A stretch of DNA of 64,000 nucleotides. It comes from Hyphomicrobium nitrativorans NL23. Lineage in GTDB: Bacteria; Pseudomonadota; Alphaproteobacteria; Rhizobiales; Hyphomicrobiaceae. Below are positions 1-6,510 of this stretch, piece by piece. Position numbers and translations under genes: made by a program. The stretch's first letter is position 1; each line of letters starts with the position of its first letter. The stretch is taken from NCBI RefSeq assembly GCF_000503895.1, contig NC_022997.1:124001-188000 (forward strand), read 5' to 3'. The notes beneath the pieces are model-generated. The model was not told the origin of the DNA, made no database searches, and saw only the letters and a list, made by a program, of their open reading frames with translations.

Positions 1-97
1 CTTCGGACCCTATCAGTCCGAAGCGTGAATCGTCGGTCTCATCAAAGAGATATAGCGTTTTCTGATCCGATTCCATCGGATCGGAAAACGCTCTAGC
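1..97 (-). repeat. Palindromic intergenic repeat, family A (copy 1, cut by window start)
   Basis: Read on the minus strand this matches the copy at 42666-42773 in order and spacing. One palindrome is built on the arms CTTCGGAC/GTCCGAAG (1-25). It is followed by a GANTC site (GAATC on the plus strand) and TCTCATCAAAGA, then a second palindrome built on AGCGTTTT and GATCCGAT arms (about 55-95) that ends at a CTCTAG. The two-palindrome layout and the roughly 108-bp size of the complete copy resemble the RIME-type mosaic elements of rhizobia; that link is inferred from memory of the family. Confidence 0.75.
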
Positions 98-793: not shown

Positions 794-3700
794 CTACAGG
801 CGGCGGGCGAGCGAACGCAGGCCATCGAACAGACGAAGCTGGCGCTCGTCCTGCCCCTTGGTCTCGTTCGCCAACTGCTCGATGCGGTCGAAGGGCACCT
901 GCTCCGCCTCGATCAGCGAGCGCGTCGCCTTCATGGAGCGGACATGGGCTTCCTGCACGAGGTGGAATTCGCCCACCGTCTGGCCCGGGAGCACGGCAGC
1001 CGGATCGAGACCGCTCTCGGACTGGAACGCCGCCTTGAGCTTCCTGAGCGCCGTGTCCTCGCGCACGCGGCCGATGAACCAACTCGTGATCTGATCGCGG
1101 GACTTGTAGTCGAGGTCGCCCGGCGACTGCGTAGCCAGCATGATGCCAAGGCCTGCCGAGCGGGCGCGCTTCAGGAGGCTCTGCAGCGGCTCTGCGGTTG
1201 CAGGCTTCGCGTTTGCGGGGATGTAGAGATCGGCTTCGTCGAACATGACGACCGCCTGCAGCTCGTCGTTCGGGTTGCGTTGACAGAAGCGCAGCGCTTC
1301 GGAGAGGAACTGCGAGACCCAGAACAGGATGTTCTCGTTGTCGCCCAGGAAGCCCGTGTAGATGATCGAGAGACGCGTGCGGCCGTCGCGGGCGTGCGGG
1401 CCGAGCCCGAGCAACCGCTCCATCTGCAGGCTTTCGCCGCCGCCTTCGAACAGCGCCGAGTTGCGGTGGCGCAGGCTGTCGAGCTGGGCCACGAGGTCGC
1501 GCCGAATCCGGCCCGAGGGGTCCATACGCTGCGTGAGATCGGTCAGCTCCGGATCCTCGTCCTCCAGGAGGTCGATGAGGTCGCCGAGCGTCACCTCGCG
1601 GCTGTGACGCGAGCCGAGAATGCGCAGCGCCACCGACAGCGTGCCCGACTGCTTCTGATGCGTCGCCGAGTTCTTCAGATGCAGCATGTCGCCGAGCGCG
1701 GCCGCGGAAAGGTTCGCCAGCAGTTGCTGCTCGTGCTCGGGCAATTCGTTAATGCCGTTCGGCAGCAGCGTGATCGAGATCGGGCGGCCGGACGAGCGAC
1801 CCGGCGTATAGACGGCAACGTCGATCGCATCCGCGAGGCGTTCGCGTTCGCCGCGCCGCTCGGTGTACTCGTCCTCGTTCGCGCGCCAGACATCCGGATT
1901 GGCGTAGCTGCAGAGATCGCCCTTGCGGTCGATGAGGATCGCCGGAATGCCTTGCAGCAAAAGCTGCTCGATGATGCAAAGCGCGAGCGTCGTCTTACCG
2001 GAGCCTGAGCCGCCGAGCACCGCGCTGTGGCGCTTCAAGACGTTCTTGTTGAGGCTGATCGGCTTGTTCAGCACGCCGACCTCACGGCCCGCGACGATGC
2101 TCGATCCGCTGGTGCCGCTTTCGTCGAGGATAACGGAGAGCGGCAGTTCGTCGTCGTTGGCGGGCCGCTGATCCGTTGCGTTCGCGCCAAGCGACCAGGG
2201 CGGCGGCAGCGCAGACTGAGAGTGATCCGGCAGCGTCTGATCCGGGGCGCCCGGCGCGAGTTCGCCCTGAGCCGGCGCGATATCGACGGGAGGCGAGAAT
2301 GGCGCGGGCGCGTCGGCGACGGCTGCGGCTTCCGGCTCCGCGCGGGACGCGGCGCGCGGCAGGGCTCGCCCCAGCAGATCGAGCCGCAGCACGCTGATGA
2401 TCGAAATGATGTTCGAAAGGAGCTTGGCGTCCTCGAACCATGTCTGGAAGCCGGGATCGTTCCTGTAATGCGCGTGGAACTCGCGCACCATCATCATGCG
2501 CTCCCACTCGGGAATCGGGATCGTGAACAGGCGGCCGCCACCTTCGCGGAATTTGCGGAACGCCTGCGCCGTCTGGTTCTTCTTGTTCGACGGATAGTCG
2601 CTCGCGCGCAGCATCACGCAGTTTTTGCCGGCCGTCATCGGCAGCACCTTGTCGAGCTGACGCTTTAAACCGCCGCCCTGGGTGGGGCGGTTGCAGAGAA
2701 ACACGCGCAGATCGCTCATGTGACCCGACTTGTGGCTCACGCGCACGTCGAACGCGGGGACCTCGTCGGACACTTCGAGGCGGCCGACACTGAGCTTGAT
2801 CGCGCTGCCCCATTCGTCGCGGGCGAGCGAAAGCGCCGACGTGAAGACGTCGAGCAACTCGTTCTCATCGGACGGGATCTCTGCTTCCGACGCATTCTGA
2901 AAACGCTGCCATGCGTCGCGATAATCGACGGACGGCGTGAGCGGCCCCGCCGTGTCGGCGCTGTCCGGACTGCCGAAGATGCCGCCGAGCGCGGAGGCGA
3001 GCGTCGACGTCCAGGAGCCCATGTCGGGCGCTTCGTCGTCGTCGGCCTCGGCGGGCGCCGTCTTGTCGCGAAGGCGGCTCTGCGCATGTTCGAGCAGGCG
3101 GCGCGTCGAGAGACCGCCGAACTCCTCGAAGAAATCGGGGCCGAAATACTGCGCGGGATCGGGGAAGGCGAGCCCGCCCGCTTCCTCAGCGATGTACTCC
3201 AGGCGTTTTGCAATGATCAGACGCGCTTCATCTTGCGTGCGGGATTCGAGAAGCGGCACTGGGCCGGCCTTCTCGATGCGGTCGATGTAGGATTGCGCGA
3301 GCACGCCGCGCACCTGCCCGTAGAAATCCTCCAGACAGGAAATGATGATGATGGCGTTCGGCAGCCGGTTCGCGATCTGAATCAGGTCGCGCGCAGCACG
3401 CTGGAAACGCTCCTCCGCGTCGTCGAAGAAACGCAGATCCTCGACCTGATCGATGGAGAACACGAGAGAGGCGCGTTCCACCGTCCACATCAACGTGCCG
3501 AGAGCGGAGATGATTTCGAACGCGCGATCTTCGCCCGTGTTCGGATCGAGAGCAGCGACGGCCTGATGCGCGAGCGGCGTCAACTGGCGGCCGAACAGAT
3601 ATTGGCGCACGCGCTGATCGATGCGCGGATCGTGGCGCTCCAGATACAACATCGCGCGGACGATGTTGATGTCGAGCTCAAGCTCGCGGAACTTCGGGCT

Positions 3701-4246
3701 CGCGACGACCTCGTCGGCCAAGCGCAGCACGAGAGACGCCAATTGCTCGTCGGAAAGAGAACCGTCGCGAAGGTCGGCAAGATGCGCCTTCGACAATACT
3801 TCGGAATCGCCCACGAGACGCTCCGTGAGACGGGCGAGGCCGCTCTCGCCATCGGCCGGACCGTCGGGATCGTAGGCCTTCTCAAGCGAGTGCACGAGAC
3901 GGCGCAAGTAGTAGTCGGCATAGTTGGAGACGTCGGGCGTCATCTGCGCATAGCCGAAATAGGCGCGGCCCTCGCGATGCGCCGCCGTGCGCAGCGCGCG
4001 CAGAAGGTGCGTCTTGCCCGCGCCGGACTGGCCGTGGAACAGCAGAATGCGCGACGGCCCGGCCGCGCCCGGCCGGCCGTTCGTAATTTCAGCGAGCAGG
4101 TCGGAGAACTTGCGGCGCGCTTTTGCATGCACCGCCGGCACATCGACGGGGTCGGCCCGCCAGATGTCATCCTCCCAGGTGATGGAGTGCTCAAAGGCTT
4201 GGGACAGCTTGTCCGCGGAACCGGCCTCGACAACGTCCTGCTGCAT
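794..4246 (-). CDS. Dual-ATPase protein: N-terminal AAA/STAND-like and C-terminal HerA/FtsK-like modules
   Basis: A protein of about 1150 residues with two P-loops. The first Walker A is GQSGAGKT near residue 72, with a Walker B-like segment ending IDQVED near 265, as in ORC/STAND-type AAA ATPases. After a low-complexity linker and a middle domain (about 440-620, with NKKNQTAQAF) comes a second ATPase: Walker A GGSGSGKT near 745, Walker B VVMFDEADLYIP near 1000 and an LATQSP sensor-like stretch. This matches HerA/DUF87-type DNA translocases. ATG at 4246 is preferred over the in-frame TTG at 4249; GGAG lies about 11 bases upstream. It follows the gene at 4291-5454 by 44 bases on the same strand. 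The architecture resembles ATPases of phage-defence or DNA-processing systems, but I cannot name a characterised family. Function is inferred. Confidence 0.85.
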   Translation of the reverse strand: MQQDVVEAGSADKLSQAFEHSITWEDDIWRADPVDVPAVHAKARRKFSDLLAEITNGRPGAAGPSRILLFHGQSGAGKTHLLRALRTAAHREGRAYFGYAQMTPDVSNYADYYLRRLVHSLEKAYDPDGPADGESGLARLTERLVGDSEVLSKAHLADLRDGSLSDEQLASLVLRLADEVVASPKFRELELDINIVRAMLYLERHDPRIDQRVRQYLFGRQLTPLAHQAVAALDPNTGEDRAFEIISALGTLMWTVERASLVFSIDQVEDLRFFDDAEERFQRAARDLIQIANRLPNAIIIISCLEDFYGQVRGVLAQSYIDRIEKAGPVPLLESRTQDEARLIIAKRLEYIAEEAGGLAFPDPAQYFGPDFFEEFGGLSTRRLLEHAQSRLRDKTAPAEADDDEAPDMGSWTSTLASALGGIFGSPDSADTAGPLTPSVDYRDAWQRFQNASEAEIPSDENELLDVFTSALSLARDEWGSAIKLSVGRLEVSDEVPAFDVRVSHKSGHMSDLRVFLCNRPTQGGGLKRQLDKVLPMTAGKNCVMLRASDYPSNKKNQTAQAFRKFREGGGRLFTIPIPEWERMMMVREFHAHYRNDPGFQTWFEDAKLLSNIISIISVLRLDLLGRALPRAASRAEPEAAAVADAPAPFSPPVDIAPAQGELAPGAPDQTLPDHSQSALPPPWSLGANATDQRPANDDELPLSVILDESGTSGSSIVAGREVGVLNKPISLNKNVLKRHSAVLGGSGSGKTTLALCIIEQLLLQGIPAILIDRKGDLCSYANPDVWRANEDEYTERRGERERLADAIDVAVYTPGRSSGRPISITLLPNGINELPEHEQQLLANLSAAALGDMLHLKNSATHQKQSGTLSVALRILGSRHSREVTLGDLIDLLEDEDPELTDLTQRMDPSGRIRRDLVAQLDSLRHRNSALFEGGGESLQMERLLGLGPHARDGRTRLSIIYTGFLGDNENILFWVSQFLSEALRFCQRNPNDELQAVVMFDEADLYIPANAKPATAEPLQSLLKRARSAGLGIMLATQSPGDLDYKSRDQITSWFIGRVREDTALRKLKAAFQSESGLDPAAVLPGQTVGEFHLVQEAHVRSMKATRSLIEAEQVPFDRIEQLANETKGQDERQLRLFDGLRSLARRL

Positions 4247-4290
4247 CAATCAACGGTCTCCAACGCAAGTGGTCTCCGTGAACGGGCGAT

Positions 4291-5454
4291 CTATTCCTCG
4301 ACCCGCACGAAGTGCCACACGGTGTTTTTGTAAGGGACGGCCGAACGCTCGATGTTGTCCGCGTTCCGCTTGTCCTTGAGATCGGCGTTCGCCAGCACCA
4401 GCGCTCCCGCACGGTGCGCTTCAGCCAGCATGCATTTGAATTCGATCTCGGAGAGGGCCCACGCCGGTTCGCTTGCGCGAATCGCCTCCCATACGTGGGA
4501 AATATACGCCTTGCGGCTGCCGGACCAGCCCTCCGCGCGAGAGGCCGCAGCCTTCTTCACGGCGAAGGCAAACTGAGGAAGATCCGGCCGCAGCGCCTTG
4601 GGCGGATCGACGGCGACAGGTGCCGAATCGTTGGCCGCGGTTGGCGGTGCTGCGTCCGGCGCGGGCACGCGCAGCGGCATCTGCGGCGGCGCATCGGGTG
4701 TCGGGATGATGTCCGATCCGGCGTCCAAAGCCCGGGCCCCGAGGCCGCGCAGCACACCTACGCGCAATGCAGCAAGCGTCGAATCCTTTGCGCCCGCGCG
4801 TTCAGCCGCGAGCTCCGCAATCAGCTTGGCATCGGTCGCGAACGCGCGCGGGTTCTGCGAGAGCTGGCCTGCCAGCAAACGGCCAGCCTTCGCGGAGAGC
4901 GCCGACCCCTTGCCGATACCCGCCTTGATGCGGTTTCCGAACGCCCGTTCCAGCGCCACGACCGCGAGTTGCGCCCTGAGCTTCGTCGGCGCGGCGTTTT
5001 TCTTCACCGACAGCCCGAAGGCCTTCTGCACGATGAGCGTACGCAGGCCTTCGACCCGCGCCAGCGGCTTCACGCGCGCCGAGGTTTCCTTTTCGAGGCC
5101 GAGGCCCTTGGCGATGAGGCCGATATCGCGCAGTTCCGCCCAGGGCTTGGGATCGACGGTCTTTTGCCCGAGGTAATGGGCTGCGGCGCGCGCGCCGTCG
5201 CCGGTCGCCGCAAGGCGTCGCTTCTCCTCGACCGCAAGTCCGTTCGCGAGGAGATGGCCGATTTCACGCTCGGCGAGGCGGCGCCAATCGGCCGGCGACA
5301 GCTTATGAGTAAAAAGCGGTGCGAGATCGGCCGCCACCTCAGCGCGCGTCGCGCCGCCGGCCGCGGAAATGCGGACAAGGACCAGGTGTCCGGTCGCCGA
5401 CGCACCCGTGCGCCGCGGCCCGGCAAGGGTGGCACCGCTGCCAAGCGCCGACAT
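4291..5454 (-). CDS. Uncharacterised partner of the dual ATPase, helical with winged-helix-like ends
   Basis: 387 residues with a perfect Shine-Dalgarno (AAGGAGG, 8 bases before ATG 5454). The N-terminal 80 residues look like a compact helical/winged-helix segment. Residues about 80-240 are Ala/Leu/Arg/Lys-rich helices. A Pro/Ala-rich linker (about 245-290) leads to a C-terminal domain of about 90 residues with AYISHVWEAI, EFKCMLAEA and a final VPYKNTVWHFVRVEE, again winged-helix-like. No catalytic motif is visible. It is the first gene of a two-gene operon with the ATPase, so it is probably a DNA- or substrate-recognition adaptor for it. This is inference; I do not recognise the family. Confidence 0.75.
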   Translation of the reverse strand: MSALGSGATLAGPRRTGASATGHLVLVRISAAGGATRAEVAADLAPLFTHKLSPADWRRLAEREIGHLLANGLAVEEKRRLAATGDGARAAAHYLGQKTVDPKPWAELRDIGLIAKGLGLEKETSARVKPLARVEGLRTLIVQKAFGLSVKKNAAPTKLRAQLAVVALERAFGNRIKAGIGKGSALSAKAGRLLAGQLSQNPRAFATDAKLIAELAAERAGAKDSTLAALRVGVLRGLGARALDAGSDIIPTPDAPPQMPLRVPAPDAAPPTAANDSAPVAVDPPKALRPDLPQFAFAVKKAAASRAEGWSGSRKAYISHVWEAIRASEPAWALSEIEFKCMLAEAHRAGALVLANADLKDKRNADNIERSAVPYKNTVWHFVRVEE

Positions 5455-5847
5455 TTCGCACGCCTCCTTCCCTGCACCTCGATTGTTGAGAGCCGTACGC
5501 GCGAATCACCGGCCTGATTCCGGACAGTCTGGGAGAGACGGCCTTGCGTTCCAAGGGATTCGCTCCCGGCTTCTGTGCTTTTTTGCAAGGTTGTAGCCGC
5601 GATGCCGCTCTTGCGAACGCAACTTGCCCGCCGATCCGGCTTTTGCCGCCTCCTCGCCCAAATGGCGTCACCTTCATTGGCAAAATACCGAGAGGGCATC
5701 GGGGGATGGACGGAGGCGAAAGCCAGTCCGTTGATGGCGCAACTCTTAATCTTTCCGGCAACCCGGCCTTAGTGTTAACGGCGAGTTAACCGCTTATTGC
5801 GATGGTCGCTCTCTGTCACCGCGCGTCCATTTGCGGGAGTTAAGGAA
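5455..5847. promoter_or_regulatory. Divergent intergenic region between the ATPase operon and the CAP lipoprotein gene
   Basis: About 390 bases without a supported gene. It must hold the leftward promoter for the two-gene operon and the rightward promoter for the lipoprotein. A perfect inverted repeat GTTAACGGCGAGTTAAC lies near 5774-5790, about 60 bases before the lipoprotein start, and could be an operator. No sigma-factor consensus can be assigned with confidence. The open frames through it are Arg/Ser-rich noise. Confidence 0.4.
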
Positions 5848-6510
5848 ATGTTGCGCGTCGTCCTGCTTGCCGTTGCCGCCGCTTCGCTGGGCCTCGGGGC
5901 CTGCAGCATGAACACCGCTGGGCTCTCGTCCGGCTTCGCCCAATCCGACACGGCTTCGTCGACGTCCACCGGCTCTCTCGGCGGCAGCCCCAGCACGCGC
6001 TCCTCGCTGACCGGAAGCGGCACGCAGGTGGCCGCCCTCAATCCCGACATGGCGCCCACGGGCTCCTACGAGAAAGCCCCGCGCGGCGCGCTTGCCGACC
6101 GGAACTATTCCGCAACCGCGCTCAATCCCGAGCGGGCGCGCGACCTCGTCAACCAGTACCGCGCCGAGAAGGGCTTGAAGCCGCTCCGCCTCAACGCCGC
6201 ACTGACCGAAGCCGCCAAGGCGCACAGCCGCGACCTCGCCAAATGGGACCGCATCTCGCATTACGGCTCCGACGGCTCCAACCCGTGGGATCGCGTCAAG
6301 CGGACAGGCTACAAGCCGAAGCTCGCGGCCGAGAACGTCGGCACGGGGCAGGTCTCCTTCGACGAAGTGCTCGTCGGCTGGAAAGAGAGCGAAGGGCACA
6401 ACAAGAACCTTCTCATCGGGGATGCCCGCGAGATGGGCCTGGCGCTGGTGCAGGACCCCAAGACCGAATTCAAGTCGTTCTGGACGCTCGTGATCGGCGC
6501 GCCGATGTAA
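5848..6510 (+). CDS. CAP (SCP/PR1-like) domain lipoprotein
   Basis: About 220 residues. The start at 5848 is chosen over the longer frame because it opens directly with a lipoprotein signal (MLRVVLLAVAAASLGLGAC, lipobox LGAC) and has GGGAG 8 bases upstream. After a Ser/Gly/Thr-rich linker the CAP domain runs from about residue 95, with NQYRAEKGLKPLRLN, the AAKAHSRDLAKWDRISHYG helix-strand unit containing the conserved His, GYKPKLAAENVGTG, and W..S.GHNKNLL. These are hallmarks of bacterial CAP proteins (YkwD-like). It probably sits on the periplasmic face of a membrane. The role of bacterial CAP proteins is poorly known. It converges with the gene at 6550. Confidence 0.9.
   Translation: MLRVVLLAVAAASLGLGACSMNTAGLSSGFAQSDTASSTSTGSLGGSPSTRSSLTGSGTQVAALNPDMAPTGSYEKAPRGALADRNYSATALNPERARDLVNQYRAEKGLKPLRLNAALTEAAKAHSRDLAKWDRISHYGSDGSNPWDRVKRTGYKPKLAAENVGTGQVSFDEVLVGWKESEGHNKNLLIGDAREMGLALVQDPKTEFKSFWTLVIGAPM

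What the first reader, a model, noticed from the sequence alone, without database searches (positions are those of the whole stretch)
794..5454. Uncharacterised operon of a dual-P-loop ATPase and a helical adaptor
Two genes, one strand: a 387-residue helical/winged-helix-like protein with a perfect Shine-Dalgarno, then an 1150-residue protein with an AAA/STAND-type and a HerA/FtsK-type ATPase in one chain. Large multi-ATPase proteins with an adaptor are typical of phage-defence and DNA-handling systems. Flanks are a palindromic repeat and AT-shifted gene-poor DNA, while the rest of the window is core genome. I cannot place it in BREX, Dnd, Wadjet or another named system from sequence alone, and no nuclease or methyltransferase is beside it. 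Seen: two P-loops and operon layout. Inferred: defence or DNA-translocation role.
Basis: partly seen in the sequence, partly recalled or inferred. Interest (0 to 1): 0.72.

Follow-up and report, generated by a model that had tools for sequence, protein, structure and literature searches.

The report
Clade-fixed DNA-pump operon without nuclease
A two-gene operon for a large DNA-pumping motor and a probable DNA-binding partner looks like a predicted virus-defence machine that has lost its DNA-cutting enzyme and become an inherited part of Hyphomicrobium-like bacteria.

Summary
In detail: 4291-5454(-) encodes a 387-aa double winged-helix protein, 794-4249(-) an 1151-aa protein with an AAA ATPase, a restriction-nuclease-like middle domain lacking a visible catalytic motif, and a HerA/FtsK ATPase. 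No searched library names the adaptor. The architecture resembles the Orc/CDC6-coupled "HerA/FtsK capture" class predicted in 2024 (PMC10853773) as mobile, nuclease-bearing anti-invader systems.

It differs on two tested points. No DUF559-type nuclease gene was found in the fetched DNA around 79 relatives or in its own genome. It looks vertically inherited: the ATPase is in 35 of 36 genomes of its family, and on an rpoB tree of 29 genomes all nuclease-less carriers lie on one side; class samples held only itself.

A Xanthobacter plasmid copy may link the types: Hyphomicrobium-type adaptor, weak nuclease-like frame before it.

Best reading: a domesticated, nuclease-less DNA pump under purifying selection; whether it serves genome maintenance or invader capture is undecided. 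New variant of a known kind.

The parts
4291..5454 (-). Adaptor gene, 387 aa: winged helix 1, helical core, low-confidence linker (about residues 250-290), winged helix 2
   Evidence: ORF; AlphaFold2 mean pLDDT 87.9; no match at E 1 in Pfam, PADLOC, NCBIfam or PHROGs, none in PDB sequences at E 10
5155..5397 (-). Adaptor N-terminal winged-helix module (about residues 20-100)
   Evidence: my reading of the model's secondary structure
4294..4587 (-). Adaptor C-terminal winged-helix module (about residues 290-387); holds 14 of the 25 invariant columns
   Evidence: model, alignment of 37 rows
5463..5468 (-). Shine-Dalgarno AGGAGG of the adaptor gene
   Evidence: sequence, 8 nt before the ATG
794..4249 (-). 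ATPase gene, 1151 aa (1150 from the ATG at 4246)
   Evidence: ORF, families, 39-row alignment
3059..4123 (-). AAA ATPase module (about residues 43-397), AAA_16/BrxD-like; Walker A at 4010-4036
   Evidence: Pfam, NCBIfam BrxD 2e-5 but far under its cut-off, model, Walker A invariant 39/39
2465..2923 (-). Restriction-nuclease-like middle domain (residues 443-595); one invariant Asp (D501), no conserved (D/E)xK, so probably inactive
   Evidence: predicted order of helices and strands; D501 is the only D, E or K conserved at 90% or more in residues 484-534; fold not confirmed by a structure search
857..2110 (-). HerA/FtsK-type ATPase module (about residues 714-1131); Walker A at 1988-2017, Walker B at 1232-1255
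   Evidence: Pfam DUF87/HerA_C, Foldseek HerA/TrwB, motifs; this part of the model has low confidence
5797..6510 (+). Divergent CAP-domain gene, the most constant neighbour; not argued to be part of the machine
   Evidence: Pfam CAP 6.1e-23; divergent in 51 of 60 relatives' loci with an adaptor gene starting 1.5 kb or more into the locus

Best explanation
The operon encodes a two-part DNA-translocating machine related to the Orc/CDC6-coupled HerA/FtsK capture systems. The double winged-helix adaptor binds DNA and/or seats the motor; the N-terminal AAA module works as a loader or switch; the HerA/FtsK module, as a ring, pumps duplex DNA. The nuclease partner carried by its distant relatives is missing and the middle domain looks catalytically dead, so the machine moves or holds DNA rather than cutting it by itself. 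In the window's family and some neighbouring families it has become a resident, vertically inherited part of the chromosome, most likely serving genome maintenance or standing surveillance. Shown: domain content, no DUF559-type nuclease gene beside the operon, distribution in the samples searched, purifying selection. Inferred: ring-shaped pumping, DNA binding by the adaptor, nuclease loss rather than primitive absence, and the cellular role.
For: Domains. ATPase in 35 of 36 same-family genomes, adaptor in 34 of 36; in 24 genomes of other families of the order 5 and 4 (my count of strong matches: the printed tally, 57 of 60, includes short HerA-like matches, that, 38 of 60, equals mine). Order sample: 23 of 199 match; 20 have the long adaptor beside the ATPase, one (G050) ends at a contig edge, two are triads. 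Class samples: only itself in 289 and 210 partly overlapping genomes. rpoB tree of 29 chosen genomes: all 13 nuclease-less genomes in a 14-row group (90/82) with one triad genome; the 12 rows outside a 17-row group (100/98) all lack it. Nuclease profile (4 rows): no hit in the 79 relatives' loci, hits in the distant relatives; own genome no DUF559 at E 0.01. Link: the Xanthobacter plasmid adaptor scores 43.8 bits with the Hyphomicrobium-type profile against 3.6 with the triad profile, its AAA falls on the Hyphomicrobium side (100/99, long branch), a nuclease-like frame precedes it (20.7 bits, searched alone); hhalign 90.4 against at most 26.0 in 20 shuffles. dN/dS.
Against: No experiment. That the 13 form one clade is not shown: the best tree puts one triad genome among them (held together: p-AU 0.135), the tree is midpoint-rooted and its 14 non-carriers were chosen by me from 19. 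The short triad adaptors (about 220-235 aa) are not demonstrably homologous to the 387-aa adaptor (profile probability 10.9; only Tsukamurella's score, 24.7, beat its shuffles). The Xanthobacter nuclease-like frame is weak, its ATPase frame ends before HerA, and a plain tblastn of the window's adaptor against plasmids found nothing, that copy included. Nucleases of other families were not searched for, in the own genome or beside relatives. A seventh distant relative (G682, partial) showed no nuclease in its short flank. The HerA half of the model is of low confidence. One family genome (G023) lacks both genes and one of 1.8 Mb (G015) lacks a detectable adaptor.
Confidence: 0.55

Rival explanations
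1. It is still an anti-invader system, fixed in the clade: the pump intercepts phage, plasmid or conjugating DNA and either blocks it or feeds it to a host nuclease encoded elsewhere.
For: The nearest described class is predicted to act this way (PMC10853773). The six full-length distant relatives carry a nuclease. The middle domain diverges fast inside the clade (29-42% identity at rpoB identity of 79-82%), as a decoy or sensor might.
Against: Near-universal retention in the family, purifying selection on both genes, ordinary GC, no match in 50,697 phage records and none confirmed in the viral contig scan, whose confirming query was the Methylobacterium ATPase. Mobile genes beside it: none among the three neighbouring window proteins scanned; most neighbours of relatives were not scanned.
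Confidence: 0.3
2. It is a DNA-repair or end-processing motor of the HerA-NurA kind, using an unlinked nuclease.
For: Foldseek hits include a HerA-NurA complex and Sulfolobus HerA.
Against: Only the HerA core is shared; no DUF559-type nuclease gene is adjacent (NurA itself was not searched for); the AAA module and adaptor have no counterpart in HerA-NurA (recalled).
Confidence: 0.1
3. The nuclease was never lost: the two-gene form is the older state, and triads added a nuclease and swapped the adaptor.
For: The split between the two types is not rooted by these data.
Against: In the samples searched, triads occur in Actinomycetota and Alphaproteobacteria but the two-gene form only in part of one order; the Xanthobacter copy carries a nuclease-like frame.
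Confidence: 0.05

Closest known systems
Orc/CDC6-coupled HerA/FtsK capture systems (NAR 2024, PMC10853773)
   Same: AAA ATPase, inactive restriction-nuclease domain and HerA/FtsK combined, with winged-helix proteins and a predicted DNA-interception role
   Different: No active nuclease gene found beside it, not in an evidently mobile neighbourhood, retained across a clade; no winged helix visible after the middle domain in the same chain
   Same: Tsukamurella ATPase aligned over 940 columns, probability 99.7, E 3.5e-27
   Different: They carry the nuclease and a shorter adaptor of about 220-235 aa; ATPases only about 20-28% identical to the window's; sparse in the samples
MADS Mad8 ATPase (PADLOC model)
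   Same: Best PADLOC match of the ATPase, in the HerA module, E 4.5e-21
   Different: Only the HerA module; no PADLOC model matches the adaptor
BREX type 2 BrxD
   Same: Weak AAA similarity (NCBIfam 2e-5, 23.9 bits against a cut-off of 350)
   Different: No BREX methyltransferase or PglZ among the five window proteins scanned
SIR2-HerA, HerA-NurA and TrwB-type coupling proteins
   Same: HerA/TrwB-type motor fold
   Different: Different partner proteins; no effector gene recognised here

Membership tests
Orc/CDC6-coupled HerA/FtsK capture systems | HerA/FtsK ATPase | tested here: met
   Pfam DUF87 6.9e-12, Foldseek HerA, motifs 39/39
Orc/CDC6-coupled HerA/FtsK capture systems | Orc/CDC6-type AAA ATPase | tested here: inconclusive
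   AAA_16/AAA_22 and weakly BrxD-like; membership of the Orc/CDC6 clade was not separately tested
Orc/CDC6-coupled HerA/FtsK capture systems | inactive REase domain between AAA core and a C-terminal winged helix | tested here: inconclusive
   topology of the middle domain fits and no (D/E)xK is conserved, but no structure match was isolated for it and no winged helix is visible after it in this chain
Orc/CDC6-coupled HerA/FtsK capture systems | winged-helix domain or protein | tested here: met
   two modules in the adaptor model; relation to DndG/SspB/FokI not tested
Orc/CDC6-coupled HerA/FtsK capture systems | active REase partner (the paper says 'usually') | tested here: not met
   DUF559-type profile: no hit in 79 loci, none in own genome; other nuclease families not searched
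Orc/CDC6-coupled HerA/FtsK capture systems | mobile gene neighbourhood | tested here: not met
   clade-wide retention and a conserved CAP neighbour in 51 of 60 loci
BREX | PglZ and PglX/BrxX partners | tested here: not met
   none among the five window proteins scanned; ATPase far under the BrxD cut-off; more distant genes not scanned
DndFGH | DndF, DndG and full DndH | tested here: not met
   best DndH match is to its HerA end, 8.5e-8; no DndF or DndG match to either protein
MADS | multi-gene set mad1-8 (recalled) | tested here: not met
   for these two proteins only mad8 and weakly mad3, both in the HerA module; adaptor unmatched; neighbours not scanned with PADLOC
Cellular FtsK | being the genome's FtsK_SpoIIIE protein | tested here: not met
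   a separate strong FtsK_SpoIIIE match exists in 8 of 8 genomes with the operon

The most novel reading that the evidence does not exclude
A former anti-invader capture machine, stripped of its nuclease, has been domesticated into a clade-specific chromosome- or DNA-handling motor beside FtsK, for instance for moving DNA through the hypha into the bud in budding members of the group (the budding habit is recalled; no test of it was made).
Probability: 0.15. Interest if true: 0.8.

Novelty: new variant of a known kind. Interest (0 to 1): 0.5.

Why it matters
In the passages read, capture systems of this class are predictions from sequence. A nuclease-less version kept by nearly every sampled genome of a cultivable family gives a clean place to ask what the pump does without its cutter, and whether defence machines can turn into housekeeping DNA motors.

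Tried and rejected
Strain-variable island: rejected by distribution and context. FtsK replacement: rejected, FtsK is separate in 8 of 8. Adaptor as kleisin: Foldseek's JetA and MukF hits have E 0.098 or worse and TM 0.25 or less, so no fold match. Pfam on each of 37 adaptors gave only scattered weak hits (HemN_C in 4, best 0.0055; HVO_A0261_N in 2; two others in 1 each), not followed. Homology of the 387-aa adaptor to the short triad adaptors: not shown. Phages and viral contigs: nothing. A first rpoB tree was wrong because antisense frames were picked for some genomes; one search replaces it. In the gene tree two triad rows were cut to their C-terminal part and the Xanthobacter branch was extreme; the AAA-only tree replaces it, where the trimming of row T_G647 may have kept extra residues. 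G052 had no rpoB hit and dropped out; four rpoB rows (G043, G045, G354, G367) are partial. The rate comparison has one triad pair with rpoB and may be spoiled by gene transfer, so it is not used as proof. The nuclease profile included the Xanthobacter frame; one search tested that frame with a profile without it. My notes say the Xanthobacter ATPase was cut by an IS; the calls show only that its frame ends about 260 bases before IS3-family genes.
Full report
WHAT IS THERE. Two genes on the minus strand, adaptor (4291-5454) then ATPase (794-4249), 41 nt apart, with a perfect Shine-Dalgarno before the adaptor. The window's adaptor matches nothing in Pfam, PADLOC, NCBIfam or PHROGs at E 1 or PDB sequences at E 10; a few of its 37 relatives have weak Pfam hits. 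Its AlphaFold2 model is good (mean pLDDT 87.9) and I read a winged helix at each end of a helical core. Foldseek gives no PDB match at E 0.001 (best 0.098). The ATPase has an AAA module, a middle domain whose predicted helices and strands fit a restriction-nuclease fold, a low-confidence linker, and a HerA/FtsK module. Walker A of both modules and the HerA ATQ motif are identical in 39 of 39 rows; in residues 484-534 one Asp (D501) is the only D, E or K conserved at 90%. Mean pLDDT of this model is only 70.5 and the HerA half is weak.

WHERE IT OCCURS. Of 36 genomes of the window's family (window included), 35 have the ATPase and 34 the adaptor; of 24 genomes of other families in the order, 5 and 4 (strong matches counted by me; the printed tallies are 57 and 38 of 60, the first inflated by short HerA-like matches). 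In an order sample 23 of 199 match at 1e-25: 20 with the long adaptor beside the ATPase, one (G050) at a contig edge, two triads. In two partly overlapping class samples only the window's own genome matches (1 of 289 at 1e-30; 1 of 210 at 1e-25); in a phylum sample 3 of 219: itself, a triad (G647), and a partial HerA match (G682). No phage record and no confirmed viral contig encodes a relative. Four plasmid-collection records match the ATPase partly, none over 80%; the adaptor matches none. From the genome collection 97 relatives were recognised and 79 loci kept, mostly labelled Hyphomicrobium, Filomicrobium or Hyphomicrobiaceae; that the window itself belongs there is inferred from these. 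The divergent CAP gene flanks the adaptor in 51 of 60 loci with enough upstream DNA; farther neighbours vary (MoeA, transglycosylase, carboxypeptidase).

DESCENT. I chose 30 genomes (14 nuclease-less, 2 triad, 14 without, the last from 19 non-carriers); 29 gave rpoB. The midpoint-rooted tree puts all 13 remaining nuclease-less genomes in a group of 14 (support 90/82) that also holds one triad genome; a group of 17 (100/98) has 13 nuclease-less, 2 triads and 2 without; all 12 rows outside it have none. Holding the 13 together is not rejected (p-AU 0.135). Against five close relatives dN/dS, by a Nei-Gojobori script, is about 0.10-0.12 for the ATPase and 0.13-0.20 for the adaptor, with synonymous change already high.

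THE NUCLEASE. Distant relatives of the ATPase in Tsukamurella, Nonomuraea and Methylobacterium are preceded by a protein of about 225-235 aa that I take for a winged-helix adaptor and by a DUF559-type nuclease (Pfam 5.1e-9 and 7.5e-11 for the two actinobacterial ones; the Methylobacterium one by alignment). The Tsukamurella ATPase aligns over 940 columns (probability 99.7, E 3.5e-27). None of the 79 loci of the nuclease-less type has a match to the four-row nuclease profile, though several loci are cut short by contig ends, and the own genome has no DUF559 at E 0.01. Xanthobacter plasmid pXAUT01 is a possible intermediate: its adaptor fits the Hyphomicrobium type (43.8 bits against 3.6; hhalign score 90.4 against at most 26.0 in 20 shuffles), its AAA falls on that side of the split (100/99, but a long branch), and a short nuclease-like frame runs into the adaptor start (20.7 bits with a profile that excludes it). 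Its ATPase frame stops before the HerA part, near IS3-family genes.

COMPARISON WITH PRINT. The 2024 paper PMC10853773 (abstract, passages and part 7 of its main section seen) describes mobile neighbourhoods that usually join an Orc/CDC6 ATPase, an inactive REase, an active REase of one of two families, HerA/FtsK and winged-helix proteins, and proposes that such systems intercept invader DNA. A 2026 paper that cites such work as its authors' own repeats the theme (PMC12839542, abstract, section 36 and passages seen). Neither main text mentions Hyphomicrobium, and the 2024 text names neither DUF559 nor Vsr (figures and supplements not seen). Searches for DUF559 with HerA (one Deinococcus paper, listing only), Hyphomicrobium with HerA (none) and capture-system phrases (only the 2024 paper) found no account of this operon in the open library. 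So the triads look like members of that class by domain content; the Hyphomicrobium-type operon shares most of the architecture but fails two tested features (active nuclease, mobile context), and I file it as a variant related to the class rather than a member.

FUNCTION. The most likely mechanism is a ring-shaped DNA pump loaded or switched by its AAA module and positioned by the adaptor. Domains and distribution are shown; pumping, DNA binding and role are inferred. FtsK is present separately in 8 of 8 genomes with the operon, so it is not the FtsK of the cell. Whether it now serves the chromosome or still intercepts invaders cannot be decided from sequence. At rpoB identity of 79-82%, HerA modules within the nuclease-less type are 65-77% identical, AAA 55-61%, the middle domain 29-42% (six pairs); the one triad pair with rpoB data (79%) has 56, 47 and 42%: the motors are held tightly, the middle domain is not.

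On going back over the calls I corrected the wording on the triads (six full-length relatives, plus a partial one without a nuclease in view), the order count (20 with adaptor, one at a contig edge), the Foldseek figures for the adaptor, and the extent of the neighbour scans.

Noticed in passing
window 51-95: Near-perfect palindrome (21-nt arms, 3-nt loop) beyond the ATPase's 3' end; the only place in the window that matches its pattern, and its core is seen only in loci of the window's own genome among 214 held.
   Followed up: partly
L142 4185-9194 and L143 4069-9203: Complete triads in the Methylobacterium aquaticum megaplasmid and a Nonomuraea replicon, in stretches with no gene listed in the plasmid collection.
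   Followed up: yes
L141 6269-9278: Xanthobacter plasmid pXAUT01 holds a copy with the Hyphomicrobium-type adaptor whose ATPase frame ends before the HerA part, about 260 bases before IS3-family genes.
   Followed up: partly
G015 and G023: A 1.8-Mb family genome keeps the ATPase but shows no adaptor, and one family genome lacks both; not checked whether this is loss or assembly.
   Followed up: no
L214 (G682): A partial HerA-module relative in a distant member of the phylum, in a 788-aa frame, without nuclease or adaptor match in its short flank.
   Followed up: no
L144: The Tsukamurella triad lies between ribosomal-protein genes, next to a VapB/PIN-domain toxin-antitoxin pair.
   Followed up: no
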